This document shows positions 1 through 10,973 of a stretch of DNA of 10,973 bases, one piece after another (position 1 is the first letter of the stretch; every line of letters starts with the position of its first letter). The DNA comes from Candidatus Saccharicenans sp. (GTDB taxonomy: Bacteria > Acidobacteriota > Aminicenantia > Aminicenantales > Saccharicenantaceae), in contig JANLGB010000041.1 of the NCBI GenBank assembly GCA_024653405.1, forward strand, positions 1 through 10,973, given 5' to 3'. The notes below the pieces were generated by a model. The model was given only the letters and a program-made list of their open reading frames with translations, ran no database searches and was not told where the DNA came from. The position numbers and the translations under genes are program-made.

Positions 1-892
1 TGGGTGTAGAGATGCCGACCAGTTCCCGCAGCACTTTTTGATGTTCGGTCAGCAACCGGCCAAATTGCTGGGGGTCGAACTTTCCAGCCTGGAAAAGTTT
101 AAGCCCTTCCCTGGTCAAATCGCGGTTGAGGATGGCGCCGTGGAGTGGTTGCCTGATTTCCGGGGGAAAGGTCCGGCTGAGCTTGAGCAGTTCGGTCTCG
201 CTGATGGTGGCCAGGTCCAGCCCGGGATTGGTCTTTTTCAGCAGCTGCCAGCCCCGGGTGACTCTTTCCCGGACCGACCCCAGGGTGCCAGTGGTATCCT
301 TTTTTTCCAGCGAGTCCCCCAGGACAAAAGTCCCCGGGGGCGAAGGCAGCCGGGTAACCTGGAGACCACCGGCAAACTTAATCCAGACCGTCCCGCCCAG
401 AGCCGAGGTGTAGTGGTCCATCTTGCCTCCGGGTTCCCGGAACTCCACCACTTCTGCCCGGTGAGCCAGCTCGGCCACACCTTCTGGCTCCGGGGCCAGG
501 TCCCGGGCTCCGCTGGCTTCCAGCAGGAACTTGATCCAGGCCACCACCATGGCCGAGGAGCTGGAGGTCCCGGCATTAATCGGAATTTCACCGTGCATGG
601 TTATTTCCCAGCCGGTCGGGAGGCGACAGCCAAGGCGGAGCAGAACGTTGACCGCACTGCGCAGGTAATCTCTTGCTTTGAGGTAGTTGAGTTCTGTCTC
701 CGGGATGAAACTATCTTCTTCCCCGGTATCGGGCAGGTGAATGATAAAGCGGTGGTCGGACCGGACCCGTCCTTCAACATAAAAGCGCAGGCTGATGGCC
801 GCGGCGATGACCTCCAGGTCCAGGTAGTCCTGGTGCTCGCCGAACAGACAAATTCTCCCGGGGGAGGAAACCCTGAGGTTGATTTCTGGCAT
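1..892 (-). CDS. GHMP-family sugar kinase, galactokinase-like (partial, C-terminus off the left edge)
   Basis: Reading the minus strand from the ATG at 892 gives 297 codons with no stop before the window edge, so the gene is cut off. GHMP kinases phosphorylate a sugar or small alcohol with ATP in the cytoplasm. Residues 12-23 read GRICLFGEHQDY, close to the galactokinase signature GRxNxIGEHxDY, with R13, E19, H20 and D22 in the places used for sugar contact and catalysis. Residues 104-114 (PINAGTSSSSA) are the GHMP ATP-binding loop, and residues 155-168 contain GGKMDHY, where D159 matches the catalytic Asp of the GalK GxMDQ motif. The third GHMP motif would lie beyond the edge. A GGAG sits very close to the ATG, so the ribosome site is poorly placed. 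The gene is transcribed divergently from the metallo-hydrolase. It could act on galactose, arabinose, a heptose phosphate or another sugar; the substrate cannot be called. The family assignment is firm. Confidence 0.88.
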   Translation of the reverse strand, partial: MPEINLRVSSPGRICLFGEHQDYLDLEVIAAAISLRFYVEGRVRSDHRFIIHLPDTGEEDSFIPETELNYLKARDYLRSAVNVLLRLGCRLPTGWEITMHGEIPINAGTSSSSAMVVAWIKFLLEASGARDLAPEPEGVAELAHRAEVVEFREPGGKMDHYTSALGGTVWIKFAGGLQVTRLPSPPGTFVLGDSLEKKDTTGTLGSVRERVTRGWQLLKKTNPGLDLATISETELLKLSRTFPPEIRQPLHGAILNRDLTREGLKLFQAGKFDPQQFGRLLTEHQKVLRELVGISTP

Positions 893-927
893 TCTCCAGT
901 CTTTCTTTGAACCCGAGTCAGGCTTAA

Positions 928-956
928 AATTTATCCCAGCCGCGCCCGGCTGTCAA
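928..956 (-). promoter_or_regulatory. Sigma-70-like promoter candidate for the GHMP kinase
   Basis: On the minus strand a perfect -35 hexamer TTGACA (plus positions 951-956) is followed after 17 bases by TAAATT (928-933), a 4 of 6 match to the -10 consensus. Transcription would begin roughly 30 bases before the ATG at 892. The match is by eye, and sigma-factor consensus in this lineage is unknown. Confidence 0.4.
937..952. repeat. 6-bp inverted repeat inside the kinase promoter spacer
   Basis: CAGCCG at 937-942 and CGGCTG at 947-952 are exact inverted copies around a 4-base loop. The element lies between the putative -35 and -10 boxes of the minus-strand promoter and touches the -35 box. A repressor operator is one possibility. 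It is too short and lacks a T-run, so an intrinsic terminator is unlikely. In GC-rich DNA a 6-bp palindrome can occur by chance. Confidence 0.3.
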
Positions 957-983
957 TTTTATTCCCGGAAAAAAACAGCCCGA

Positions 984-1012
984 TTGATTTATTCGCTGAA
1001 ATTATTTATAAA
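984..1012 (+). promoter_or_regulatory. Sigma-70-like promoter candidate for the metallo-hydrolase
   Basis: TTGATT (984-989) and TATAAA (1007-1012) are separated by 17 bases and match the consensus at 4 of 6 and 5 of 6 positions. They lie in an AT-rich patch that contrasts with the GC-rich surroundings. The gene start at 1043 follows after about 30 bases, with GAAAGG at 1031-1036 as its ribosome binding site. Confidence 0.4.
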
Positions 1013-1042
1013 GAATTTTCTGTTATCAAAGAAAGGTTCATC

Positions 1043-1813
1043 ATGAAAATTATTTTTCTGGGGACGGGCGGCGCCGTGCCCACCGCCACCCGGGATAATA
1101 CCAGTTTCCTGCTCGAGTCCGGGGCGGACCTCTGGCTGGTGGATGGTCCTGGTTCTCTGACCCAGAAAATCTTCAGAGCTGGCCGCCGGCCGCAGCAAGT
1201 TTCGGCCGTCTTCATCAGCCATGTCCATGCCGACCACCTTTACGGCCTGCCGGCTTTTATCCACAGCCTGATGCTGGAAGAAAAAACGGTGCCGCTGTAC
1301 GGCTCAGCCGAAACCATCGACTTTTGCCTGCGTCTTATCGACCTGTTCGGACTGCGCCGTGAAAAAATTCTGTACCGGCTGGAACCGAGGCCCATTCTTC
1401 CCGGCCGCAGGATCGAAGTTTCACCGGGGCTGGCCGTGACCGGCTTTCCGGTCCCGCACCATTCATCTTCCCTGGCTTTCATCTTGGAGACGCCGGAGGC
1501 CAGGGTGGTCTATTCCGGAGATACCCCGCTCCACCGGCCGCTGCTGGAGCTGGCGGCCGGGGCCGATTGCCTGATCCATGACTGCAGCACTCCCTCCAGA
1601 TTCCTTGAAGCCCTGCCTTTTTTGCGGTCGCTGCACAGCAATTCTCTGGAGTTGGGACAGGCTGCCCGGGAAGCTGGGATCCGGCTGCTGGTACCATGCC
1701 ATTTTTTTAGCGACCTTGATTTTTCTCTGGAAGAAATAGAAGCTGAGATCAGGAAAAGTTATCAAGGACGGCTTTTCTTGCCGGCCGATTTCTCTGAACT
1801 GGAGCTTCCTTGA
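1043..1813 (+). CDS. Metallo-beta-lactamase-fold hydrolase, RNase Z-like
   Basis: This 256-residue protein is a probable cytoplasmic two-metal phosphodiesterase or hydrolase of the RNase Z / ElaC branch. It opens with the typical strand-turn MKIIFLGTGGAVP, and the zinc motif HVHADH supplies H60, H62, D64 and H65. Further likely ligands are H139 or H140 in PVPHH, D160 in YSGDTP, and H220 near the end. HDCS at 179-182 and H198 are also typical of this branch. The length is shorter than tRNase Z proper (about 300 residues or more), and I see no convincing long exosite insertion, so a tRNA-processing role is not assured; a general RNase Z-like or arylsulfatase-like hydrolase is equally possible. 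The ATG at 1043 is chosen because GAAAGG precedes it at a 6-base spacing and the conserved first strand begins there. It is divergent from the GHMP kinase, and its stop codon overlaps a possible small ORF. Confidence 0.88.
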   Translation: MKIIFLGTGGAVPTATRDNTSFLLESGADLWLVDGPGSLTQKIFRAGRRPQQVSAVFISHVHADHLYGLPAFIHSLMLEEKTVPLYGSAETIDFCLRLIDLFGLRREKILYRLEPRPILPGRRIEVSPGLAVTGFPVPHHSSSLAFILETPEARVVYSGDTPLHRPLLELAAGADCLIHDCSTPSRFLEALPFLRSLHSNSLELGQAAREAGIRLLVPCHFFSDLDFSLEEIEAEIRKSYQGRLFLPADFSELELP

Positions 1814-1938
1814 TGAAGCGGCTGATATCCCCCAAAGGTCACTTTCGGTCTAAAATGGAATCGAAAGCCGCGACCGCAGTGCCCGGCCCTGATGACCACA
1901 TCTTAAGTTTGGGTCTGCCAGCCAGGCCTTATATATAA
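1813..1938 (+). CDS. Possible 41-residue small protein (unrecognised)
   Basis: An ATG at 1813-1815 shares a base with the stop of the metallo-hydrolase (TGATG), the kind of junction seen for translationally coupled genes. A GGAG lies at 1801-1804, 8 bases upstream. The frame stays open for 41 codons to a TAA at 1936-1938, filling nearly all of the gap before the amidohydrolase. The predicted peptide begins MKRLISPKGHFRS and ends LGLPARPYI. It is basic at the N-terminus and has no transmembrane segment, cysteine or motif that I recognise. An open frame of this length in GC-rich DNA can arise by chance, so this is a candidate only; conservation in relatives would decide. Confidence 0.25.
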   Translation: MKRLISPKGHFRSKMESKAATAVPGPDDHILSLGLPARPYI

Positions 1939-1955
1939 AAAGGAATAAATAAGAA
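1928..1955 (+). promoter_or_regulatory. AT-rich leader with ribosome binding site of the amidohydrolase
   Basis: The 28 bases before the ATG at 1956 are almost pure A/T. They contain a TATATATAAAA run (1930-1940) and AAGGAA (1940-1945), which is a plausible ribosome binding site with a 10-base spacer. The TATATA run could also serve as a -10 box, with a weak TTGGGT (1909-1914) 17 bases before the hexamer at 1932-1937, but a start from there would remove the ribosome site. The translation role is better supported than the promoter role. Confidence 0.3.
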
Positions 1956-3656
1956 ATGAAATCAGTAAAAAACCTGCTCCCGCTGCTGCTGGCCGGCCTG
2001 TGCCTGGTCGGTTGCCAGAAGCAAGGAGGACCCATGGCCGAAACTGTTTTCTTGAACGGACATATCTGGACGGCGGACGAATCTTGCCCGGAAGTTGAGG
2101 CCCTGGCCGTTGTCCAGAACAAAATTATCAGGACCGGTAGCAACGCCGAGATAAAGAAATTGATCGGAGACCGGACCCGGGTGATTGACCTCCAGGGAAG
2201 GCTGATGCTGCCCGGGTTTATCGATGCTCATACTCATTTTCTCAACGGCGGCCTGGCCCTGCGCTCGGTGCAGCTTCGCTCCTGTCGCAGCCGGGAAGAA
2301 TTCGTCAACCGGATTGCGGCCAAGGCCCGGGAACTGCCGCCCGGTTCCTGGATTCTTAACGGCGACTGGGACCAGGAGCAGTTTGACCCGCCCGTCTTGC
2401 CTTCCCGGGACTGGATTGATGCGGTGACCCCGGACCATCCAGTCTGCGTCAACCGCTTTGACGGCCACATGGTGCTGGCCAACAGCCTGGCCCTGAAGCT
2501 GGCTGGGATTGACCGGAATACCGTGGCCCCGCCCGGCGGCGAAGTCCTCAGAGACCCGGTTTCGGGCGAGCCGACCGGCATCCTGAAGGACGCTGCCGCC
2601 GACCTGGTCTACGCCGTGATCCCGGCCCCGGACCTGAAAGAAAAAATGGAGACCGCCAGGTTGGCCTTGAAAGAAGCCGCGGTTAACGGCGTTACTTCGG
2701 TTCATGACATGTCTGATGCTTCGAGCTTCGAGGTTTACCAGGAATTGCTCCGGGCCGGGGAATTGACGGCCAGGCTGTATGTCTATTTCCAGATTCCGGA
2801 AATTGATAGTTTTCTCCGGCTGAAAATCAAATCAGGTTTCGGCCATCCTTTTCTGCGGCTGGCCGGGCTGAAGGGATTCGTCGATGGTTCGCTGGGTTCG
2901 GCCACGGCCCTTTTCTTTGAGCCCTATGCCGATAATCCCGGAGCATATGGCCTGCTAGCTGCCCACATGTTTCCCGAAGGAATCATGGAGAAGCGGCTGA
3001 GGCTGGCCGACGAAGCCGGCCTGCAGGTGGCTGTCCATGCCATTGGAGACCGGGCCAATGCTCTGCTCCTGGATATAATGGAAAAAATAATCCAGGAGAA
3101 CGGACCCCGCGACCGGCGCTGGCGTATTGAACACTGCCAGCACCTGAGAAAGAGCGATATTGAACGTTTTGGCCGGCTGGGATTGATCGCCTCTGTCCAG
3201 CCTTATCACGCGATAGACGACGGCTGCTGGGCCCAAAGAAAAATCGGATCAGAGCGGGCCCGGACCACCTATGCCTTCCGCTCACTGCAGGCGGCCGGAG
3301 CCAGGCTGGTCTTTGGCTCGGACTGGACGGTGGCCCCGCTCAATCCCCTGACCGGAATTTATGCTGCGGTCACCAGGAAAACCCTGGACGGGAAGAATCC
3401 AGACGGCTGGATACCGGAAGAAAAGATCTCACTGGAAGAAGCCATAAAAGGATATACCATCAGGGCGGCCTATGCTGAGTTTTCCGAAAAGGAAAAAGGT
3501 TCCCTCAGGGCGGATAAGCTGGCCGACCTGGTGGTGCTGGACCGGGACCTGTTTCGCTTGAAGCCCGATGATATCCCTGGCATCAGAGTGCTGCTGACCA
3601 TGGTTGATGGAAGGATTGTTCATTCTGACCCTGAATTCTTGAATGATGAAAAATGA
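1956..3656 (+). CDS. YtcJ-like metal-dependent amidohydrolase with lipoprotein signal
   Basis: This 566-residue protein is a member of the amidohydrolase superfamily, YtcJ/NfdA-like branch, whose members cleave amide-type bonds with a TIM-barrel metal centre; the substrate is not predictable here. Residues 1-20 are a lipoprotein signal: two lysines, a hydrophobic stretch, and the lipobox LVGC with C20. The barrel begins with GFIDAHTHF, giving H92 and H94. A KGFVDGSLGS segment follows at 306-315, then H361 in AVHAIGDRAN, H393 in RIEHCQH and D456 in FGSDW, the usual remaining metal and catalytic positions. The length fits the family plus a signal peptide. An AAGGAGG with an in-frame ATG at 2034 lies just after the lipobox and could start a cytoplasmic 540-residue form. 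The end overlaps the next gene by 14 bases, so it may be the first gene of the downstream redox operon. The family call is firm; location and substrate are less so. Confidence 0.9.
   Translation: MKSVKNLLPLLLAGLCLVGCQKQGGPMAETVFLNGHIWTADESCPEVEALAVVQNKIIRTGSNAEIKKLIGDRTRVIDLQGRLMLPGFIDAHTHFLNGGLALRSVQLRSCRSREEFVNRIAAKARELPPGSWILNGDWDQEQFDPPVLPSRDWIDAVTPDHPVCVNRFDGHMVLANSLALKLAGIDRNTVAPPGGEVLRDPVSGEPTGILKDAAADLVYAVIPAPDLKEKMETARLALKEAAVNGVTSVHDMSDASSFEVYQELLRAGELTARLYVYFQIPEIDSFLRLKIKSGFGHPFLRLAGLKGFVDGSLGSATALFFEPYADNPGAYGLLAAHMFPEGIMEKRLRLADEAGLQVAVHAIGDRANALLLDIMEKIIQENGPRDRRWRIEHCQHLRKSDIERFGRLGLIASVQPYHAIDDGCWAQRKIGSERARTTYAFRSLQAAGARLVFGSDWTVAPLNPLTGIYAAVTRKTLDGKNPDGWIPEEKISLEEAIKGYTIRAAYAEFSEKEKGSLRADKLADLVVLDRDLFRLKPDDIPGIRVLLTMVDGRIVHSDPEFLNDEK
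2023..2036 (+). promoter_or_regulatory. Strong internal ribosome binding site and second start codon
   Basis: AAGGAGG at 2023-2029, a near-perfect anti-16S match, stands 4 bases before an in-frame ATG at 2034-2036 (Met27 of the amidohydrolase). It lies six residues after the lipobox cysteine and just before the first strand of the enzyme domain. It is better than the site in front of the annotated start, so a cytoplasmic form could be made in addition to, or in place of, the lipoprotein. Confidence 0.45.
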
Positions 3657-4122
3657 GCCGAATCTGAAAGACAGACTGGAACGCCTGGTGGCTTCCATCC
3701 CGGCCGGGAGAAGCCACCTGATTCTCTTCCTGCACCGGGTGCAGCAGGAGTTTGGTTACCTGCCAGAAGAAGCCCTGGCCAGGGCAGCCGAGTATTTTAC
3801 GGTGTCTCCGGCTGAAGTCTATGGAGTGGTTACTTTTTATTCGGCCTTCCAGATGAAGCCCCGGCCCCAGCACGAGCTGGTCGTCTGTCACGGCACGGCC
3901 TGCCATGTGCACGGAGCTGAAGCCATCCACACTGAGCTGGCCCGGCTTCTCGGGGTCGAACCCGGAAAGGAGGACCAGGGAAAAGACGTGACCATCCGCC
4001 GGGTGAACTGCCTCGGTTGCTGCGCCCTGGCTCCGGTGGTGGTGGTTGACGGCGAGTACCAGGGCCGGGTCACCCGGAACAGCCTGGAAAAAATTGTGGA
4101 AAGATTATCCGGTAAAAAGTGA
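3643..4122 (+). CDS. nuoE: NuoE/HydC-like [2Fe-2S] thioredoxin-fold subunit
   Basis: This 159-residue protein is the small [2Fe-2S] subunit that partners NuoF-type NADH dehydrogenase subunits, as in complex I (24 kDa subunit), HydABC and HndABCD; the symbol is a family label. It has an N-terminal helical part with FGYLPEEAL and EVYGVVTFYSAF, typical of the family, then a thioredoxin-like domain with C82 and C87 (CHGTAC) and C123 and C127 (CLGCC), the standard C-x4-C and C-x3-C ligand pairs. It would pass electrons to or from FMN in the next subunit. Two ATGs in tandem (3643 and 3646) are possible starts. Neither has a visible ribosome binding site, and the start lies inside the end of the amidohydrolase gene, which suggests translation by reinitiation. 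The identity as a NuoE-family protein is secure; membership of respiratory complex I is not supported by the neighbours. Confidence 0.92.
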   Translation: MMKNEPNLKDRLERLVASIPAGRSHLILFLHRVQQEFGYLPEEALARAAEYFTVSPAEVYGVVTFYSAFQMKPRPQHELVVCHGTACHVHGAEAIHTELARLLGVEPGKEDQGKDVTIRRVNCLGCCALAPVVVVDGEYQGRVTRNSLEKIVERLSGKK

Positions 4123-6026
4123 TGAACCTGAGAAAGGTTAGGACAGTCGGCGAGCTACAGAACCTGCGGTTACGGCTGCAGTCTTCTCCCCGAACCCGGC
4201 GTTTGGTCAGCCTGTCGACGGCCAGCTGTGGTCGGGCTTCGGGAGCCCTGGAGGTGGCCCGGGCGCTTGAGGCAGAGATAAAAAGGCGCGGGCTGGAAGA
4301 AACAGTGGAACTAAGGCTCACCGGATGCCACGGGTTCTGCCAGCTGGAGCCGGACCTCATCATCTTCCCGGAAAAAATTTTTTACCCCAACCTGGTCCCG
4401 AAAAAGATCCCGTTGCTGGTGGAAGAGACCTTGGTCGGGGGACGGTTGGTGCCAGAGCTGGCTTTCAGCCCCGGCCCGGGACAGGGTATGTGTGCAGTCC
4501 TGGAGGAACTGCCTTTTCTGCGAAAGCAGGTGCGGTGGCTGCTGGAACGTCACCTGACGCTGGACCCCGACAGTCTGGATAGTTACCTGGAACAGGATGG
4601 GTTCTTGGCCCTGGAAAAAGTCCTGTCCGGCTTATCCCCGGAAGAGGTAATCAACCTGGTACTGGCTTCCGGCTTGAGGGGCCGGGGTGGAGCCGGTTTT
4701 CCTACGGGTCTCAAATGGCGTTTGGCGCGGGAAGCCGGTGGTGAGGATAAATACACAATCTGTAACGGGGACGAGGGCGACCCCGGGGCCTACATGGACC
4801 GGGGGTTGCTGGAGAGCAACCCTTTTAGCGTGATTGAAGGCATGATCATCGGCGGTTATGCGGTGGGCGCCGCTAAGGGCTTCATTTACATCCGGCAGGA
4901 ATACCCGCTGGCCATCGAGCGGCTGGAAAGGGCCCTGGAAAAAGCCAGGGCCGCCGGGCTGCTGGGGAAAAACATCCTGGGCACCGATTTTTCTTTCGAG
5001 CTGGAGCTGGTCCGGGGAGCCGGAGCTTTTGTGTCGGGTGAAGAGACTGCCCTCATAGCTTCTATAGAAGGCCGGCGGGCTTTTCCCAGGCAGCGGCCAC
5101 CATTCCCGGTGGTCCGGGGCCTGTGGGGCCGGCCCACGGTGATCAATAACGTTGAAACCTGGGCCAATGTTCCCCTGGTACTGCAGCGGGGGCCGGCCTG
5201 GTTTTCCCGGGTGGGCACTTCCGGGAGCAAGGGGACCAAGATATTTTCCCTAGTGGGAAAAGTCCGTTATACCGGCCTGGTGGAGGTGCCTTTTGGTCTG
5301 ACTCTGGGTGAAGTGATAGATGAAGTGGGCGGGGGAGCTGAACCCGGCCGCCAGATCAAAGCTGTTCAAACCGGCGGGCCCTCCGGCGGCTGCCTGCCGG
5401 CTTCTTTATTCCAACTGCCCCTTGATTATGAATCGCTGCAGCAGGCCGGCTCCATCATGGGTTCGGGCGGGATGATTGTCATAGACGAGAGCACCTGCCT
5501 GGTAGACCTGATTCTCTATTTTCTGCGTTTTGCCCGGGAAGAATCGTGTGGCCAGTGTGCTCCCTGCCGTCTGGGAACCAGGCAGATGGTCCGGCTGCTG
5601 GAGAAAATTACCAGGGGTGAAGGGCAGTTAGAAGACCTGGAGCTTCTGCAAAAAATCGGCTGGACCATGCGGGAAGCCTCCCTTTGCGGGCTGGGACGGA
5701 CAGCAGCCAATCCGGTTCTGAGCGCCCTGCGACATTTCCGCCAGGAATTAGAAAAGCACGTCCTGGATAAAGAATGCCCAGCCGGGGTCTGCCGCGGGCT
5801 AATTTCTTACCAGATAGAAAAGGAGAGGTGCAGTGGCTGCCAGCGGTGCCTGGAGTCCTGCCCGGTTAAAGCCATAGCTATGGCCGATGACGGTTATCCG
5901 CAGATAGACCAGAAGCTGTGCACCAGGTGCGGCCTGTGCCAGGCGGCCTGCCCTCCGGATTTTTCGGCCATCGATAAAATTAACAGGAAGGAAACAGGAT
6001 CTTCCGCCGGCGCGAGGGGTGAATAA
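4122..6026 (+). CDS. nuoF: NuoF/HydB-like FMN and NADH-binding subunit with extra Fe-S domains
   Basis: This 634-residue protein is an NADH-oxidising flavoprotein, longer than complex I NuoF (about 430). Counting from the ATG at 4122: residues 30-115 are a thioredoxin-like [2Fe-2S] domain with C36, C69 and C73. Residues 180-380 hold the FMN/NADH core with GRGGAGFPTGLKW, CNGDEGDPGAYMDR and an SGEETALI stretch. An SLBB-type region follows, then a [4Fe-4S] site with C476, C479 and C482 (ESCGQCAPC) and C522. The C-terminus carries two ferredoxin clusters, C570/C573/C576/C580 and C600/C603/C606/C610. H546, C552 and C557 before the ferredoxin domain resemble the zinc-binding hinge that I recall from HydB structures. 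The whole plan is that of HydB/HndC-type subunits, many of which bifurcate electrons. The start overlaps the nuoE stop as TGATG; an in-frame GTG at 4119 is also possible. Confidence 0.92.
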   Translation: MNLRKVRTVGELQNLRLRLQSSPRTRRLVSLSTASCGRASGALEVARALEAEIKRRGLEETVELRLTGCHGFCQLEPDLIIFPEKIFYPNLVPKKIPLLVEETLVGGRLVPELAFSPGPGQGMCAVLEELPFLRKQVRWLLERHLTLDPDSLDSYLEQDGFLALEKVLSGLSPEEVINLVLASGLRGRGGAGFPTGLKWRLAREAGGEDKYTICNGDEGDPGAYMDRGLLESNPFSVIEGMIIGGYAVGAAKGFIYIRQEYPLAIERLERALEKARAAGLLGKNILGTDFSFELELVRGAGAFVSGEETALIASIEGRRAFPRQRPPFPVVRGLWGRPTVINNVETWANVPLVLQRGPAWFSRVGTSGSKGTKIFSLVGKVRYTGLVEVPFGLTLGEVIDEVGGGAEPGRQIKAVQTGGPSGGCLPASLFQLPLDYESLQQAGSIMGSGGMIVIDESTCLVDLILYFLRFAREESCGQCAPCRLGTRQMVRLLEKITRGEGQLEDLELLQKIGWTMREASLCGLGRTAANPVLSALRHFRQELEKHVLDKECPAGVCRGLISYQIEKERCSGCQRCLESCPVKAIAMADDGYPQIDQKLCTRCGLCQAACPPDFSAIDKINRKETGSSAGARGE

Positions 6027-6027
6027 G

Positions 6028-8535
6028 ATGTCGGGGCCAGTGGTCAGACTGAAGATCAACGACCGGTTGGTCCAGGCCAGGCCGGGGATGACTGTCCTGG
6101 AGTGTGCCCGCAGCCACGGAATTTTCATTCCTTCTCTCTGCGACCTGGAGGGACTGCCAGCTTTCGCCGGCTGCCGGCTGTGCCTGGTGGAAATTGCCGG
6201 GCGTCCTCACCGCTTGCCGGCCTGCCAGACCCGGGTGGAAGAAGGAATGGAGGTGATTACCACCTCCGAAGAGCTGGAAGCCCTGCGCCGTTCGACCCTG
6301 GAGCTCAGCCTGAGTGAGCATCCCAATTTCTGCCTGCTGTGCCAGGAGAAAGCCAACTGTGATGAACTCAAGATGACCATGGTCAAAGCCCTGGAACCAG
6401 GTGGCTGCCTCTTCTGTCCGAAGGATGGAAATTGCCAACTGCAGCAAGTGGTTGAATATCTGAAGGTCAAACAGGTCGCTTATGAATTTGAGGACCGAGG
6501 GCTCCGGCTGTGGCAGGATGATCCCTTCATCGCTCACAATCCTAATTTGTGTATCCTCTGCGGGCGTTGCGTCCGGGTTTGCTCCGAGGTCCGAGGAGAA
6601 AAGGTCCTGAGTTTCATCGGGCGCGGCAGTCAGACGGCCATCGGTACCTTTTTCCAGCGCAGCCTGCTCCAAGCCGATTGCAGTTTCTGCGGGGCTTGCC
6701 TCGAGGTCTGTCCCACGGCCGCTTTAGAGGAAAAGGGAGTCCTGGTGGCCCGGGGCCGGCAAATATATGAACAGCCATTCATATGTCCCCTGTGCAGCTC
6801 GGCCTGTGAACTGAGGGCTGAATTTGTGGAAGAGGGAAAGCTCCGGAGAATCGGGCCGGCTCCGGTGGAGGGACCGGCTTTCAGGTCGGGTTGCGCCCGA
6901 GGACGGTTCGGCCTGCGGGAAGTCCTGGAAGCTCAACTGACTCGGTCTATGCCCCTGGTTAAAGGAAATGGCCTGGAGCAACCGGCTTCTCTGGAAGAGG
7001 CCCTAGCCGCAGCCGCCGCTGCCCTCAAGAAATTCAAACCGCAAGAAATCGGCCTGGTGGCTTCGGCCCAGGTTTCAGCTCCTGGCCTGCTGGCCCTGGC
7101 TGAGTTGGCCGGGGCGCTCAAGGCAGATAACCTGTTCTCGTTCTATCCTGAAGGATTTCTGGACAGACTGAATGAATTTGAAAGACAGAATGGGATAAGA
7201 TTCGAGCGGTCACTGACGCGGCAGCAACTCCATCAAGGCCAAACATTTTTCCTGGTAGATACCGACCTGAAGGCCGAAGGCCTGGCTTACTGGTTGGAAC
7301 TCTGGCCAGAAATAAGCGGGGGCGCTGGCTACCTGGTTCTCGACCCGGGCCTTAACCGCTCCGCCCGGCTGACCGACCATCACCTCCAGTGCCGGCCGGG
7401 AAAAGAAGCCCAGGCGCTGCTCGGTCTGCTGAAACGGTTGACGTGGCAGGCCTCGGAGCTGAGTTTTTATCATGGTTACCATGAACTCCTGGATAGTCTG
7501 AGCAAACTGTCCGCTGAAGAACTCCAGGTGGAAAGCGGGCTGCGGGCGGCCGAGCTGGATAAAGCCGCCGCTGTTCTTCTCTCGGGTCACCCGGCCCTGA
7601 TACTTTTCGGAGAAAGGTTGTTGCGGCAGCCGCGCTGGCGGGAGAACCTGACCGCTCTCTGGAACTTGGGCCTGAGGCTTGAGGCCAGGGTCTTACCCGT
7701 GGTCAGCCGCGGCCAGGAAAGGCTTCTGGAAAAATTGAAGCTCAGTTCTGGCCTTAGAACCATCTCCGATGGGCTCCAGCTGGAACAGGATATAAGAAAC
7801 GGGAAGATAAGAGCCCTGTATGTTCTTGGAGATCTTCCGCTGGCCCAAAAGCCCGACTGGCTGCTGGTGCAGAATCCATTTAAGACCGGGCTGGCGGAAA
7901 GAGCTGATATTTTCCTGCCTTCTGTGAGCTGTCTGGAAAACGGCGGCCCGGGGGTTGACCTTTTCGGCCGGGTAAAAATGGCCAGCAAAATTCGCGGTTC
8001 GCCGGGCGGAGAAAACCGGCTGTCGGAAGCCGGGATTATAATCAAGCTGGCCGGATTACTTGGAGTAGAACTGAAACTTCCCTCGTCGGCTGAGCTTCAA
8101 GACATCATGGCCGAACCGGAAGGATTGAAATCAGACCAGGAATTGACTTATCTCCCCCTGCCCTCACCGGACCGGCTACCTGGTCGGGGAATTTTCCCCC
8201 AGCCCGAAAGAACCGCGGGAGAAGTGGAGGTGATAGTCGGCCAGAACCTGGATTTTTACGCGGGTATTTCCATGGCTGAAGTCAGTTCTGGTTTTAGGGG
8301 GCTTAATAATCCCGACTGGCTCTGGCTCAACCCCGCGGAAGCTGCCAGCCTTGACCTGCGAGAGGGGCAGCAGGTTATTCTCAAAACAGCAGACGGGGAT
8401 TTGTCCCTGGAAATCAGGCTCAGCCGTCAAATCCAGCCGGGTGTGGCCGTGGTCAACCTTATACTGGACACTTCCCTTAAACTCCGGCTCTACGGCCGCG
8501 GCCTGTTCAAGGGAAAATTGCGGGTGACCTCATGA
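6028..8535 (+). CDS. NuoG-like multi-Fe-S protein with degenerate molybdopterin-type domain
   Basis: Starting at the ATG at 6028 (GAGGGG at 6014-6019, 8-base spacer) the protein has 835 residues; an in-frame GTG at 6019 is the alternative. In order: a plant-type [2Fe-2S] domain (C38, C49, C52, C66), the NuoG His-ligated [4Fe-4S] motif (H98, C102, C105, C111), an additional CLFCPKDGNC motif (C127, C130, C136) followed by QLQ, two ferredoxin [4Fe-4S] sites (C175/C178/C181/C185 and C218/C221/C224/C228), and a molybdopterin-oxidoreductase N-terminal [4Fe-4S] site (C253, C256, C260, C289). The rest (about 305-835) follows the NuoG/formate dehydrogenase fold, including LPSVSCLENGG and a C-terminal MopB-type barrel, but the Cys or selenocysteine that binds molybdenum in formate dehydrogenases is not visible. 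There is no H-cluster motif. It is best read as an electron-wire subunit linking the NADH module to its partners. Confidence 0.85.
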   Translation: MSGPVVRLKINDRLVQARPGMTVLECARSHGIFIPSLCDLEGLPAFAGCRLCLVEIAGRPHRLPACQTRVEEGMEVITTSEELEALRRSTLELSLSEHPNFCLLCQEKANCDELKMTMVKALEPGGCLFCPKDGNCQLQQVVEYLKVKQVAYEFEDRGLRLWQDDPFIAHNPNLCILCGRCVRVCSEVRGEKVLSFIGRGSQTAIGTFFQRSLLQADCSFCGACLEVCPTAALEEKGVLVARGRQIYEQPFICPLCSSACELRAEFVEEGKLRRIGPAPVEGPAFRSGCARGRFGLREVLEAQLTRSMPLVKGNGLEQPASLEEALAAAAAALKKFKPQEIGLVASAQVSAPGLLALAELAGALKADNLFSFYPEGFLDRLNEFERQNGIRFERSLTRQQLHQGQTFFLVDTDLKAEGLAYWLELWPEISGGAGYLVLDPGLNRSARLTDHHLQCRPGKEAQALLGLLKRLTWQASELSFYHGYHELLDSLSKLSAEELQVESGLRAAELDKAAAVLLSGHPALILFGERLLRQPRWRENLTALWNLGLRLEARVLPVVSRGQERLLEKLKLSSGLRTISDGLQLEQDIRNGKIRALYVLGDLPLAQKPDWLLVQNPFKTGLAERADIFLPSVSCLENGGPGVDLFGRVKMASKIRGSPGGENRLSEAGIIIKLAGLLGVELKLPSSAELQDIMAEPEGLKSDQELTYLPLPSPDRLPGRGIFPQPERTAGEVEVIVGQNLDFYAGISMAEVSSGFRGLNNPDWLWLNPAEAASLDLREGQQVILKTADGDLSLEIRLSRQIQPGVAVVNLILDTSLKLRLYGRGLFKGKLRVTS

Positions 8536-9374
8536 ACAGAGTGGTTCTGGTAGAAAGACTGGTGCCCAACCTCTACCGCCTGGTGGTTGAAGCCCCGGAG
8601 GTGGCCGCTTCGGCCCGGGCCGGCCAGTTTGTCATGGTGATTCCTGATGGGAAAGGGGAGAGGATTCCAATCAACCTGGCCGATTGGGATAAGGAAAAGG
8701 GGACCGTAGACCTGGTGTTCCTGAACCTCGGGGTCAGCACCAGAAAACTGGCCAGCCTGAAGCCGGGAGACAGAGTAGAAGGCATAGCCGGACCTCTCGG
8801 CCGGGCACCTGAAATCCCGGCCGCGACTGAAGTGCTCCTGGTTGGTGGTTGCTACGGGGTGGGCGGGCTTTATCCGCTGGCCCGGGAGTTAAAGCAGGCC
8901 GGCGTCCGGGTCATCTTCCTGGCCGAAGCCCGTAGCCGGGCTTACCTTTACTGGCAAGAGAGGCTTAAAAAGTTCAGCGACCTTTTCCTGACGGTTTTCC
9001 GTTCAGACTGCCTGGGGCCGGCTCAGGAGTTACGGGAGTTAATCAAAAAAATCAAATCAGGTCATCCGGACCTGAGCCTGGTGCTGGTCATGGGTTGCAG
9101 TTATCTGCTGTTCAAGGTGTCGGAAGCTACGGCCGATATTCAGTTGAAAACCCTGGTCAGCCTGAACCCCATCATGGTGGACGGCACTGGGATGTGCGGA
9201 GCCTGCCGGGTTTCGGTCGCGAGTAAAACTTACTTTGCCTGTGTCGATGGGCCCTGGTTTGAGGGCCACGGGCTCGACTGGAAGGAATACTTCAACCGCC
9301 GGAAAGCTTTCCTCTCCCAGGAAGAGCAGGCCCTGGTCCGTCTGGACCGGGAATTCTGGAAAAGGACGGAGTGA
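8532..9374 (+). CDS. nfnA: NfnA-like FAD/[2Fe-2S] NAD(P)H oxidoreductase subunit
   Basis: This 280-residue protein belongs to the ferredoxin-NADP reductase-like family that includes NfnA, sulfide dehydrogenase beta and dihydroorotate dehydrogenase PyrK; the symbol is a family label. Residues 1-95 form the FAD-binding barrel with ERIPINLAD (43-51), where N48 occupies the spot usually held by Thr or Ser. Residues 100-210 form the nucleotide-binding domain with LLVGGCYGVGGLYPLA. Residues 208-241 carry the hallmark VSLNPIMVDGTGMCGACR stretch: D217, C222, C225 and C237, consistent with the Asp plus three Cys [2Fe-2S] ligation known in NfnA. The end, DGPWFEGHGLDW, is a slight variant of the usual DGPxFDGHxVD. 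It overlaps the previous gene as ATGA and the next as GTGA. Adjacency to an NfnB homologue favours NfnA over PyrK, and no pyrD lies nearby. Confidence 0.9.
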   Translation: MNRVVLVERLVPNLYRLVVEAPEVAASARAGQFVMVIPDGKGERIPINLADWDKEKGTVDLVFLNLGVSTRKLASLKPGDRVEGIAGPLGRAPEIPAATEVLLVGGCYGVGGLYPLARELKQAGVRVIFLAEARSRAYLYWQERLKKFSDLFLTVFRSDCLGPAQELRELIKKIKSGHPDLSLVLVMGCSYLLFKVSEATADIQLKTLVSLNPIMVDGTGMCGACRVSVASKTYFACVDGPWFEGHGLDWKEYFNRRKAFLSQEEQALVRLDREFWKRTE

Positions 9375-10894
9375 TTGAGGTCATGAGCGGAAAGGATAGG
9401 CTGGAGTCAGGCCAGGCCGAGAGGCTCCGGAAAGCAAGGGAGATGGATTGGAGAAAGGTTCTCCGCCGGGAAATTTCTGTTCAGAACAGGTTGACCCGAC
9501 CCCGGCATAATATGCCCGAGCAGCCGGTGGCCAACAGGGTCAGGAATTTTCTGGAGGTCAACCTCGGTTACACCCTGGAGCTGGCCAGGGCTGAAGCCCG
9601 CCGATGTCTGGATTGCGGTCAGCCCGGTTGTGTGGCCGGTTGCCCGGTAGCCATCGACATCCCAACCTTTATTAAATATATAGAAGCCGGCGAGCTCGAC
9701 CGGGCCCTGGAAAAAATCCGCGAGACCAACGGACTGCCGGCCATCTGCGGCCGGGTCTGTCCCCAGGAAGTGCAGTGTGAAAGAGCCTGCAATCTGGTCC
9801 AGGCCGGAAAGGAGCCGGTGGCCATCGGACACCTGGAAAGATTCGTGGCTGATTATCTCTGCACCAGGGAAAGCACGGGCCCGTTGCCGACTGAGAGCCG
9901 GGGAGCGGAACCGGGTAAGTGCAAGGTGGCGGTGGTCGGTTCTGGACCGGGCGGGCTGACAGCCGCGGCCGACCTGGCCCGGCTGGGTTACCAGGTGACG
10001 GTTTTTGAGGCGCTTCATCTGCCGGGAGGAGTCCTGGCCTATGGCATTCCGGAATTCCGCCTGCCGCGAGCCATTCTTCAGTCTGAGATAAATTTCATCA
10101 GGGCCCTGGGGGTTGAAATCAAAACCAATTTCATCGTTGGCCGGACGGCCAGCCTGGATGACCTGAAGCAGGCCGGTTACTTGGCTTTTTTCCTGGGAAC
10201 AGGAGCCGGGCTGCCTTCTTTCATGAACATACCTGGCGAAAATCTGCTCGGGGTTTATTCAGCCAACGAATACCTGACCAGAGTCAACTTGATGAAGGGG
10301 TTTCGCTTTCCGGAGTTTGACACGCCGGTGCCCAGGGCCCGCCGGGTGGCAGTCATTGGTGGCGGCAACGTGGCCATGGACGCCGTCAGGACCGCCCTGA
10401 GATTGGGAGCTTCCCAGGCCGTTATCTATTACCGGCGCTCGCGGGCGGAGATGCCGGCCCGGGCCGAAGAAATCAAGCATGCCGAGGAAGAAGGCATAGA
10501 ATTTAATTTTTTAACGGTGCCGGTCAGGTTTCTGGGCAATGAGCGGGGCCAGCTCCGGGGCATGGTGTTGCAGCGCCTGGCCCTGGGCGAGGTGGATGCT
10601 TCTGGCCGGCCGCGGCCGGTGCCCATCCCCGGTTCGGAGTTTGAGGTCGAGGTAGACCTGGCGGTGGTGGCCATCGGTCAGAGTCCCAATCCGTTGCTCA
10701 TTAAACAGCTGCCGCTTAAGCTCGGGCCCTGGGGTAACATTGAGGTTGATTATCAAACGATGGCCACAGGCCTGGAAGGAGTCTATGCCGGGGGTGATGC
10801 CGTCAGGGGCGGGGCCACGGTCATCCTGGCCATGGGCGACGGCCGAACTGCTGCCAGGTCGATTGATTTTTACCTGAGCCGGAAAAAAGATTGA
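9371..10894 (+). CDS. nfnB: NfnB/GltD-like FAD, NADPH and [4Fe-4S] oxidoreductase subunit
   Basis: This protein has 507 residues from the GTG at 9371 (GTGA overlap with the upstream stop); an in-frame ATG at 9383 is also possible. It belongs to the glutamate synthase small subunit-like family, and the N-terminus matches NfnB: RHNMPEQ at 45-51, then a Fer4-type domain with C79, C82, C87, C91 and C126, C130, C136, C140 for two [4Fe-4S] clusters, including ICGRVCPQEVQC. Residues 185-260 are the FAD Rossmann motif (VAVVGSGPGGLTAA, then LPGGVLAYGIPEFRLP). Residues 325-365 are the second Rossmann motif, VAVIGGGNVAMDA, with YYRRS, whose arginines suit NADPH. GVYAGGDAVRGGATVI at 470-485 closes the FAD site. 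In NfnAB this subunit carries the bifurcating FAD and meets ferredoxin. No large glutamate synthase subunit is present, so a GltD role is unlikely. Confidence 0.92.
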   Translation: MIEVMSGKDRLESGQAERLRKAREMDWRKVLRREISVQNRLTRPRHNMPEQPVANRVRNFLEVNLGYTLELARAEARRCLDCGQPGCVAGCPVAIDIPTFIKYIEAGELDRALEKIRETNGLPAICGRVCPQEVQCERACNLVQAGKEPVAIGHLERFVADYLCTRESTGPLPTESRGAEPGKCKVAVVGSGPGGLTAAADLARLGYQVTVFEALHLPGGVLAYGIPEFRLPRAILQSEINFIRALGVEIKTNFIVGRTASLDDLKQAGYLAFFLGTGAGLPSFMNIPGENLLGVYSANEYLTRVNLMKGFRFPEFDTPVPRARRVAVIGGGNVAMDAVRTALRLGASQAVIYYRRSRAEMPARAEEIKHAEEEGIEFNFLTVPVRFLGNERGQLRGMVLQRLALGEVDASGRPRPVPIPGSEFEVEVDLAVVAIGQSPNPLLIKQLPLKLGPWGNIEVDYQTMATGLEGVYAGGDAVRGGATVILAMGDGRTAARSIDFYLSRKKD

Positions 10895-10973
10895 AGAAAA
10901 AATCGCCGGCCATGGCTGACTAACCAGAGGCTAACCACACCGGTCAGGGTTGAGGCCGGGTGGCCATAAGAAG
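10895..10973. other. Tail region without a recognisable gene or terminator
   Basis: The 79 bases after the nfnB stop contain no hairpin followed by a T-run and no coding segment that I can support. The 7-base word CTAACCA occurs twice, 11 bases apart (10920-10926 and 10931-10937), and GGCCAT occurs twice. A GTG at 10960 starts an open frame of five codons before the edge. Whether the operon ends here or continues cannot be told. Confidence 0.4.

What the first reader, a model, noticed from the sequence alone, without database searches (positions are those of the whole stretch)
3643..10894. Five-gene NuoE-NuoF-NuoG-like-NfnA-NfnB cluster: a possible composite NADH/NADPH/ferredoxin transhydrogenase
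Seen: five coupled genes that join a HydBC-type NADH module, an Fe-S wire subunit without a visible active site, and a complete NfnAB pair. Known: HydABC and HndABCD put the NADH module on a [FeFe]-hydrogenase; NfnAB alone links NADH, NADPH and ferredoxin; the Sporomusa-type Stn transhydrogenase, as I recall it, combines NuoE/NuoF-like subunits with an NfnB-like subunit in three proteins. Inference: here the NuoG-like protein could replace the hydrogenase as the scaffold, giving a five-subunit enzyme with two flavin sites on the NADPH side and one on the NADH side, perhaps with two bifurcation centres. I do not know of this exact five-gene form being characterised.
Basis: partly seen in the sequence, partly recalled or inferred. 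Interest (0 to 1): 0.75.

Follow-up and report, generated by a model that had tools for sequence, protein, structure and literature searches.

The report
Five-gene composite Nfn–HydBC-type redox complex
Five adjacent bacterial genes very probably build one large electron-sharing enzyme that joins two known energy-coupling machines, and one of its parts has had its usual NADH pocket rebuilt around two new cysteines, which points to an uncharacterised reaction.

Summary
Observation confirmed: NuoE–NuoF–NuoG-like–NfnA–NfnB (3643–10894) overlap end to end and recur in the same order in the window and 64 of 80 relatives; 15 of the rest are cut by contig ends and one lacks NfnA. By record title they span Aminicenantes, Elusimicrobia, Chloroflexota, Nitrospirota, Desulfobacterota and WOR-3. 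NuoE/NuoF carry the ligands of the HydBC/"BfuBC" bifurcating core. NuoG resembles StnC without its inserted GltD domain, but has a tandem Fe–S motif there and a dead formate-dehydrogenase domain (motif alive in 3 of 79 relatives). NfnB keeps the Nfn cluster ligands, including the Glu that StnC has lost.

Unexpected: NfnA is not a normal NADH subunit. Diagnostic nucleotide-site positions are rebuilt (G107C, G132E/D, D157R mostly, P189C). The Cys pair is in 94 of 94 cluster-type NfnA and 0 of 95 others and goes with the tandem motif in NuoG. Against: three Nitrospirota loci have NuoEFG beside ordinary NfnAB; their NuoG lacks the tandem motif.

Most likely a split, enlarged relative of Stn: NADPH at NfnB, NAD(H) and ferredoxin at NuoF, NfnA re-tasked. 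Physical assembly is inferred, not shown. New variant of a known kind.

The parts
3643..4122 (+). NuoE/HydC/BfuC-type subunit, 159 aa; [2Fe-2S] Cys 82, 87, 123, 127 (bases 3886-4023)
   Evidence: PF01257; four Cys in 71 of 71 aligned
4119..6026 (+). NuoF/HydB/BfuB-type subunit, 635 aa: FMN/NADH domain, B1 [4Fe-4S], B2 ligand set C460, T498, H547, C553, C558, C-terminal 2x[4Fe-4S] (bases 5829-5951)
   Evidence: H547, C460, C553, C558 and B1 75 of 75; B2 residues defined in PMC9304861
6019..8535 (+). NuoG-like/BfuA scaffold, 838 aa: [2Fe-2S] C41-C69, tandem motif, dicluster C178-C231, N7-like C256-C292, dead pterin domain (about 6952-8532)
   Evidence: AlphaFold2 mean pLDDT 87.0
6319..6435 (+). 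Tandem Fe-S motif H101-x3-C105-x2-C108-x5-C114 then C130-x2-C133-x5-C139; sits where StnC carries its inserted GltD domain
   Evidence: All seven residues 79 of 79; not found in 11 distinct NuoG-like genes of other contexts (13 rows); low model confidence, blocks 111-120 and 121-130 pLDDT 53 and 46
8532..9374 (+). NfnA, 280 aa: a-FAD motif ERxPx(T/N/S), [2Fe-2S] D217/C222/C225/C237; NAD(H) site rebuilt (C107, E132, R157, C189, Y191)
8844..9104 (+). Rebuilt nucleotide site of NfnA, residues 105-191: GGCYG, E132, R157, GCSY
   Evidence: C107 and C189 in 94 of 94 cluster-type NfnA, in 0 of 95 other rows
9371..10894 (+). NfnB, 507 aa: two [4Fe-4S] sites (C79/82/87/91; C130/136/140 with E133), b-FAD, NADPH site
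   Evidence: the seven Cys and R230 69 of 69, E133 68 of 69
1956..3656 (+). Upstream amidohydrolase, overlaps NuoE by 14 bases; a conserved neighbour inside Aminicenantes-type records, probably not part of the enzyme

Best explanation
The five genes encode one soluble flavo-iron-sulphur complex: a Bfu (HydABC-like) bifurcating module whose third-substrate unit is NfnAB. SHOWN BY SEQUENCE: the BfuBC core ligands; NuoG with its Fe-S ligands, an extra Cys3 motif and a dead pterin site; NfnB with Nfn-type ligands (Glu133, Arg230, seven Cys, NADPH arginines); NfnA with a-FAD and [2Fe-2S] motifs kept but the canonical NAD(H) site residues replaced. INFERRED: NADPH is oxidised at the NfnB b-FAD; low-potential electrons leave by the two NfnB [4Fe-4S] clusters into the extra NuoG cluster, pass the His-ligated cluster, an N4-like cluster and the [2Fe-2S] to NuoF B1 and FMN, where NAD+ is reduced and, by NuoE and the NuoF tail, ferredoxin; all reversible. 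NAD(H) chemistry has moved from NfnA to NuoF. The high-potential electron from b-FAD still needs an exit through the NfnA [2Fe-2S] and a-FAD; what it reaches there is unknown (NuoG, or a redox site made by Cys107/Cys189). The complex would link the NADPH, NADH and ferredoxin pools of anaerobes.
For: Same five genes, order and strand in 65 of 81 loci over six phylum-level groups; median gaps -4, -4, -1 and +19 bases. 18 of 18 further WOR-3-phylum loci fetched agree, one cut at a contig end before NuoE. In the 24 largest neighbour families printed, sharing outside Aminicenantes-type records is limited to close relatives and one alanine dehydrogenase (L126). StnC, shown by cryo-EM to be one chain feeding a BfuBC module (PMC10482914), aligns as NuoG 10-106 with StnC 5-101, NfnB 81-503 with StnC 99-498, NuoG 129-370 with StnC 561-806: a natural fusion of the NuoG-like and NfnB-like parts. 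L140 fuses a NuoG N-terminus to NfnB. Cluster NfnA separates from 30 stand-alone NfnA with support 0.997 (28 of the 30 from one Desulfobacterota order), and its Cys pair occurs only with an adjacent NuoG (28 of 28 rows, 27 loci), so NfnA too is adapted to this context. In the genus a strong NfnB match is single and on the NuoG contig in 15 of 19 genomes; G004 holds only a remnant, G010 a partial copy on a contig I did not examine, two drafts none. G004 lost the middle of the cluster, as by one deletion. Subunit distances correlate, r 0.84-0.92, n = 60.
Against: No biochemical or complex-structure evidence. Conserved order also fits a co-regulated pair of enzymes. High distance correlations are expected of any co-inherited genes; no control gene was run. 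In three Nitrospirota loci NuoEFG lies beside ordinary NfnAB without the tandem motif or Cys pair, and in one WOR-3-phylum control (L338) ordinary NfnAB is followed by NuoE/NuoF-like genes, so neighbourhood alone does not force this architecture. Cluster NfnB is hardly distinct: two stand-alone NfnB (L168, L172) fall on the cluster side of the tree. If NfnA cannot use NAD(H), the classical Nfn high-potential branch has no known acceptor, a gap in the model. The fourth ligand of the extra NuoG cluster is not identified, so the cluster may not form.
Confidence: 0.55

Rival explanations
1. Two separate enzymes share an operon: an NfnAB transhydrogenase and a NuoEFG dehydrogenase, with no physical contact.
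For: NfnAB works alone in many organisms; in three Nitrospirota loci ordinary NfnAB lies next to a NuoEFG set without the special motifs, and in L288 in divergent orientation.
Against: NuoG has no active site of its own in the window, so NuoEFG alone would lack a third substrate; the NfnA changes and the NuoG tandem motif occur together in the loci checked; StnC fuses the two halves.
Confidence: 0.2
2. NuoEFG is the NADH-input module of complex I or of a membrane hydrogenase, with NfnAB as an accessory donor.
For: In two Nitrospirota genomes (L126/L224 and L146/L223) the cluster is divergent from a nuo operon in which no nuoEFG was seen. The window's genome and congener G014 hold group 4 NiFe-hydrogenase-like operons.
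Against: In the window's genome and G014 the PF00346 matches are hydrogenase-like with DPCxxC motifs and no complex I NuoD was recognised (the other 17 genus genomes were judged by score only). In three order relatives examined, the complex I operon has its own nuoE, a 414-415-aa nuoF without the Bfu tail, and nuoG.
Confidence: 0.07
3. It is a formate dehydrogenase (Fdh-Bfu) with NfnAB attached, i.e. the pterin domain still works.
For: Three relatives (L126, L140, L146) keep RLCHAP and GVNPLxGQNNxQGACDMG; Pfam scores the L146 molybdopterin domain 279 bits against 38 in the window.
Against: The catalytic Cys position is Gly in the window, and 76 of 79 sequences lack Cys there; the pterin-binding motif is unrecognisable in the window.
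Confidence: 0.03
4. Same complex, but NfnA still uses a nucleotide, now NADP(H), through Arg157.
For: Asp157 (94 of 95 rows of other NfnA) is Arg in 86 of 94 cluster-type NfnA; Arg binds the 2'-phosphate at the like position of plant-type FNR (recalled).
Against: The same position is Ala, Gly or Lys in 8 of 94; Gly107 to Cys and Pro189 to Cys change the two loops that hold the nicotinamide in the FNR fold (recalled); an NADPH-to-NADP+ branch would give no driving force.
Confidence: 0.08

Closest known systems
StnABC / Nfn-Bfu (Sporomusa ovata, Thermococcus sibiricus), Bfu Type 1
   Same: NuoE- and NuoF-like BfuBC core; NuoG-like scaffold with dead FdhF domain (in StnC); GltD/NfnB-like NADPH unit
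   Different: NfnB is a separate protein with Glu133 (StnC: Lys170) and the seven cluster Cys; NfnA is present; NuoG has a tandem Fe-S motif in place of the GltD insertion
NfnAB (Thermotoga maritima 4YLF, Pyrococcus furiosus 5JCA)
   Same: NfnB and NfnA cofactor motifs; gene order nfnA-nfnB
   Different: NAD(H) site of NfnA rebuilt, with Cys107 and Cys189; NuoG directly upstream in the loci where this could be seen
NiFe-HydABCSL (Acetomicrobium mobile), Bfu Type 3
   Same: Best PDB sequence match for NuoF (705 bits) and NuoG (172 bits); Y-shaped cluster layout with the A3 branch taking electrons from extra subunits (PMC9304861, PMC8880783)
   Different: NfnAB instead of the NiFe subunits; extra cluster motif next to the His-ligated site
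Bam-Bfu (class II benzoyl-CoA reductase)
   Same: Precedent for a BfuABC module proposed to work with a second flavin bifurcator (HdrA there; PMC9304861)
   Different: Second module is NfnAB here; no benzoyl-CoA site
Pyrococcus NfnII (5VJ7)
   Same: An NfnA-type subunit reported to lack NAD-dependent activity (PMC6405883)
   Different: Its loops are GAYTG and GP, not GGCYG and GC; no NuoEFG partner is described in the passages read

Membership tests
Bfu (HydABC-type) family | BfuB with FMN, B1, B3, B4 and the pentacoordinate B2 ligand set including His | tested here: met
   C460, H547, C553, C558 75 of 75; T498 in 57 of 75 (Thr is common in PMC9304861); B1 75 of 75; B3/B4 Cys 70-71 of 75, the rest mostly gaps. 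FMN binding itself not tested
Bfu (HydABC-type) family | BfuC [2Fe-2S] subunit adjacent | tested here: met
   four Cys 71 of 71
Bfu (HydABC-type) family | N-terminal B5 [2Fe-2S] of BfuB | tested here: inconclusive
   Cys37 in 47 of 75, Cys at 33 in 27 of 75 (Ser in the window), Cys70/74 in 75 of 75; StnB lacks two of four (PMC7483475)
Bfu (HydABC-type) family | Reversible NAD(H)/ferredoxin bifurcation | not testable with these tools
   needs enzyme assays
Nfn (NfnAB) | NfnB motifs RCx2Cx4Cx3CPV and GRVCPQExQC, N5-Arg, NADPH arginines | tested here: met
Nfn (NfnAB) | NfnA ERxPxT, DGTGMCGxCR | tested here: met
   E43/P46 94 of 94, R44 93 of 94; D217/C222/C225/C237 94 of 94; position 48 is T 38, N 36, S 20, Asn in the window
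Nfn (NfnAB) | NAD(H) site on NfnA (GGGxG, TDDGS, GPxxMM) | tested here: not met
   0 of 94 cluster-type NfnA have Gly107 or Pro189 (the set was defined by Cys at both, but includes all 72 NfnA of at least 250 aa from the scan loci, 72 of 72)
Stn (StnABC) | GltD domain fused inside the NuoG-like subunit | tested here: not met
   separate genes; NuoG lacks the insert
Stn (StnABC) | Lys in place of the NfnB Glu ligand; no NfnA | tested here: not met
   Glu133 68 of 69; NfnA present
Complex I NADH module | NuoEFG joined to a membrane arm | tested here: not met
   no NuoD-type complex I recognised in the window's genome (80% complete); three relatives' complex I operons have their own nuoEFG
Formate dehydrogenase alpha | Catalytic Cys/Sec-His and pterin motifs | tested here: not met
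   Gly at the Cys position in the window; motif in 3 of 79

The most novel reading that the evidence does not exclude
NfnA of this complex has become a new redox unit: Cys107 and Cys189, on the two loops that hold nicotinamide in ordinary NfnA, form a redox-active disulphide (or bind a cofactor shared with NuoG) fed by a-FAD. The enzyme then has two bifurcation centres in series, the b-FAD of NfnB and the FMN site of NuoF, and links four pools: NADPH, NADH, ferredoxin and a thiol or other fourth partner. In the Nitrospirota relatives with a live formate-dehydrogenase motif formate would be a fifth, one pool on each arm of the Y-shaped Fe-S network.
Probability: 0.18. Interest if true: 0.88.

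Novelty: new variant of a known kind. Interest (0 to 1): 0.7.

Why it matters
Electron-bifurcating enzymes set much of the energy budget of anaerobes. In Stn an Nfn-like fold is joined to a HydBC module and, by its authors' account, no longer bifurcates itself. Here both modules keep their bifurcation ligands in one conserved gene unit, and the usual NADH acceptor site of NfnA has been rebuilt. This makes a concrete question testable: where does the high-potential electron of b-FAD go if NAD+ cannot take it? The family models that match these genes call them Nuo subunits and sulphide/dihydroorotate dehydrogenase-like or glutamate synthase proteins, so metabolic models of Aminicenantes, Anaerolineae, WOR-3 and Desulfobacterota may misassign them.

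Tried and rejected
Complex I module: rejected for the window's genus, left open for Nitrospirota. Formate dehydrogenase: rejected for the window. Adjacent hydrogenase or other catalytic gene: ten neighbours from L042, L026, L027, L054 and L049 were scanned with Pfam; those beside the cluster are a Na/Ca exchanger, alanine dehydrogenase, acetyl-CoA hydrolase/transferase, RNase HII and AlaX-like proteins; the other neighbourhoods were compared by similarity or read by eye only. FeFe-hydrogenase in the genome: none found (genome 80% complete). Promoter/terminator and tRNA scans gave nothing useful. Distance correlation between subunits had no control and carries little weight. Structure: the NuoG model was obtained, but no coordinates are given, so cluster distances and the Cys107-Cys189 distance could not be measured; Foldseek and a second model (NfnA) never got a slot. 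Literature: ten searches showed no five-gene NuoEFG-NfnAB enzyme in the listings and passages seen; the library is open-access only and the supplements of PMC9304861, which leaves 17 BfuB clades unassigned, could not be read.

Limits of the NfnA comparison: other NfnA were drawn with one query (a Dehalococcoidia stand-alone NfnA; for WOR-3 a cluster NfnA) from one Desulfobacterota order and three phyla, the best 30 loci of each search only, plus L168 and L172. Five of the 27 Cys-pair loci are loci of the first scan (22 are new). Eight rows that repeat a locus were dropped before the 94/95 count; I overlooked one more, L257 and L288 being the same NfnA, so the 95 rows are 94 loci. Three of the 95 (L253-L255) are distant, PyrK-like sequences without NfnB. 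In one search the 28 Cys-pair rows are 27 loci and the five discordant rows three loci. Sequences under about 200-250 aa were left out. Of the 16 positions found diagnostic against 30 stand-alone NfnA, three (108, 140, 250) lost that character in the larger set.
Full report
WHAT IS THERE. The five ORFs lie at the stated coordinates, each overlapping the next. The window is bases 1-10973 of a 13,564-base contig of a 2.31-Mb, 80% complete draft genome.

CONSERVATION. A search of 99 genomes found the NuoG-like protein along nearly its whole length in 15 of 19 genomes of the genus, the window's included, one of them in broken frame. A scan of genome contigs with the first 300 residues of 13 relatives confirmed 218 stretches; the best 80 were returned. 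In the window and 64 of these 80, all five genes are present on one strand in one order; 15 others stop at contig ends before or within the missing gene; L140 has no NfnA. By record title, 20 of the 80 lie outside Aminicenantes-type records: Elusimicrobia (2), Anaerolineae/Chloroflexi (8), Dehalococcoidia (1), Nitrospirota (2), Desulfobacteraceae and relatives (4), WOR-3/Stahlbacteria (3); 18 of these 20 have all five. (L081 is titled Clostridiales, but its contig is that of G042, a member of the window's order; I count it, and the untitled L082 and L094, with the Aminicenantes.) Other neighbours (amidohydrolase, RNase HII, AlaX-like, alanine dehydrogenase, acetyl-CoA transferase) recur inside the Aminicenantes; among the 24 largest neighbour families printed, sharing outside them is limited to close relatives and one alanine dehydrogenase near L126. 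No hydrogenase, formate dehydrogenase or heterodisulphide reductase was recognised as a regular neighbour; only ten neighbours were put through Pfam.

THE HydBC-LIKE CORE. NuoF matches NiFe-HydB best among solved chains (705 bits). The B2 ligands that mark bifurcating enzymes in PMC9304861 are present: C460, T498 (Thr in about two thirds of BfuB there), H547, C553, C558; the His is in 75 of 75. The B5 site is incomplete, as in StnB.

THE SCAFFOLD. NuoG carries [2Fe-2S], His-Cys3 [4Fe-4S], a dicluster and an N7-like site, all ligands in 78-79 of 79. After the His-Cys3 motif comes a second C-x2-C-x5-C (C130, C133, C139; 79 of 79). The matches to StnC place its 459-residue GltD insertion in the stretch between the two matched parts (NuoG 107-128), and NfnB covers that insertion. 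PMC7483475 (passages) names two Cys motifs as a product of GltD integration in StnC. The AlphaFold2 model is good (mean pLDDT 87.0); the tandem region is among its weakest parts (blocks 111-120 and 121-130: 53 and 46), along with the N-terminus and 701-705 and 722-729. That suits a site ordered by a partner but does not prove one. In the scheme of PMC8880783 (passages) I equate the His-Cys3 cluster with A3, the entry used by Type 3 enzymes (inference); the extra motif would extend that branch. The pterin domain is dead in the window. In L126, L140 and L146 (3 of 79) the Cys-His and pterin motifs survive, so the scaffold probably descends from a formate dehydrogenase (inference).

NfnB. Both cluster motifs, the N5-Arg and the NADPH arginines are kept; Glu133, the position that is Lys in StnC, whose FAD does not bifurcate (PMC10482914), is Glu in 68 of 69. 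Cluster and stand-alone NfnB differ at only two diagnostic positions, and two stand-alone NfnB (L168, L172) fall on the cluster side of the tree.

NfnA, THE SURPRISE. Cluster NfnA differs from 30 stand-alone NfnA (28 of them from one Desulfobacterota order) at 16 diagnostic positions, eight of them between residues 107 and 191, and separates from them with support 0.997. After enlarging the comparison, 94 cluster-type and 95 other NfnA rows (94 loci) were compared: residue 107 Cys 94/94 against Gly 95/95; 132 Glu/Asp 94/94 against Gly 95/95; 157 Arg 86/94 (Ala 4, Gly 3, Lys 1) against Asp 94/95; 189 Cys 94/94 against Pro 95/95; 191 Tyr/Phe 94/94 against none. Residues 107, 132, 157 and 189 end the four parallel strands that form the nucleotide rim of the FNR fold (recalled, not measured). 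FAD and [2Fe-2S] motifs remain. NfnA was aligned to 5JCA, 4YLF and 5VJ7; none shows the Cys pair. In 125 rows from genome searches of one Desulfobacterota order and three phyla, 28 with the Cys pair (27 loci, five of them loci of the first scan) all have NuoG adjacent; 97 without it include five rows (three loci, Nitrospirota) with NuoG adjacent. Those three have a larger NuoF, a second NuoF-like fragment and a NuoG without the tandem motif; a CODH-like gene, recognised by eye, lies nearby. Of 23 Cys-pair loci found in the WOR-3 phylum (two already known) I fetched 18: all have NuoF, tandem-motif NuoG, NfnA, NfnB in order, 17 with NuoE, one cut by a contig end. Two fetched ordinary NfnA loci have no such NuoG; one of them (L338) has NuoE/NuoF-like genes beside NfnAB. 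So two changes in two different proteins mark the same unit. This is the strongest sign that NfnA, and not only NfnB, works with NuoG.

HOW IT PROBABLY WORKS. By the Stn precedent, NADPH at NfnB feeds NuoG, then NuoF, where NAD+ and ferredoxin are reduced. Potentials in PMC6405883 say that the first electron of b-FAD (+359 mV couple) goes to the NfnA [2Fe-2S] (+80 mV), and that only the second can reduce the -718 mV cluster. In classic Nfn the first ends on NAD+. Here the canonical residues of that site are gone. Either b-FAD no longer bifurcates (against Glu133), or a-FAD passes the electron to NuoG, or Cys107/Cys189 form a new acceptor. I cannot choose between them.

ALTERNATIVES TESTED. Complex I: PF00346 matches in the genus look like group 4 hydrogenases (operons read in the window's genome and G014 only), while three order relatives have a complex I operon (subunits within C to I seen) with its own nuoEFG. 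In two Nitrospirota genomes the cluster stands next to a nuo operon without nuoEFG (NuoA and NuoB recognised by eye), so a complex I role there is open. Separate enzymes: possible, but the paired changes and the StnC fusion speak against it. In the genus, a strong NfnB match is found once per genome in 17 of 19: 15 on the NuoG contig, G010 partial on a contig not examined, G004 the remnant; the two without it are 74% and 63% complete.

NOVELTY. Ten literature searches showed no description of this five-gene form; the closest are Stn/Nfn-Bfu and the Bfu survey. Its supplements were not readable here, so an unnoticed listing remains possible. I file it as a new variant: a member of the Bfu family by its core, not a member of Stn, and not a standard Nfn because the NAD(H) site fails.

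PAPERS SEEN. PMC9304861: abstract, sections 4-6 in part, passages. PMC10482914: abstract, Results in part, Discussion. PMC6405883: abstract, section 6, section 8 in part. PMC7483475, PMC8880783, PMC5736913, PMC4287179, PMC5911951, PMC7509429, PMC10766756: passages only. Others: search listings only.

Corrected: NfnB ligands are seven Cys and Glu133 (Cys126 is not conserved: 64 of 69); the in-cluster NfnB count (15, not 17); the overlooked repeat L257/L288; the model's other weak stretches.

Noticed in passing
Own genome contig C350 (L061:4694-8121); L221:2775-8775: A second Bfu set: in L221 NuoE-like, NuoF fused to GltD, a 238-aa BfuA and a glutamate-synthase-type protein (PF01645); in L061 NuoF-like, a 226-aa BfuA and the start of a similar-looking protein (no Pfam match to its 216 residues), with glutamine synthetase on the same contig. 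A possible Bfu-linked glutamate synthase; 'glutamate' does not occur in the text of the Bfu survey.
   Followed up: partly
L126, L140, L146 (NuoG-like genes): Relatives of the scaffold keep the formate-dehydrogenase Cys-His and pterin motifs, so the same layout may be a live formate enzyme in Nitrospirota and Dehalococcoidia.
   Followed up: partly
L223, L224: In two Nitrospirota genomes the cluster lies divergent from a nuo operon in which nuoEFG was not seen (L223 runs to NuoN; L224 to NuoI where the stretch ends).
   Followed up: partly
L286, L287, L288: A second Nitrospirota variant: NuoE, a 780-aa NuoF, a 195-217-aa NuoF-like fragment, a 670-aa NuoG and ordinary NfnAB, near a gene that looks like carbon monoxide dehydrogenase (by eye).
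   Followed up: partly
L140:7569-9470: Dehalococcoidia gene fusing a NuoG N-terminus (with Fe-S motifs) to NfnB, next to a full NuoG; the contig ends inside it. The same genome has a separate ordinary NfnAB (L172).
   Followed up: partly
L136, L186, L187: NuoF fused at its C-terminus to a GltD domain in place of the ferredoxin-like tail.
   Followed up: no
L225:6054-8030 (genome G004): A genus member keeps NuoE and the first half of NuoF next to the last part of NfnB; the middle of the cluster is missing, as by one deletion (assembly error not excluded).
   Followed up: partly
L168: An Aminicenantes genome that has the five-gene cluster (L135) also has a separate fused NfnA-NfnB gene with an ordinary GGGVG loop.
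   Followed up: no
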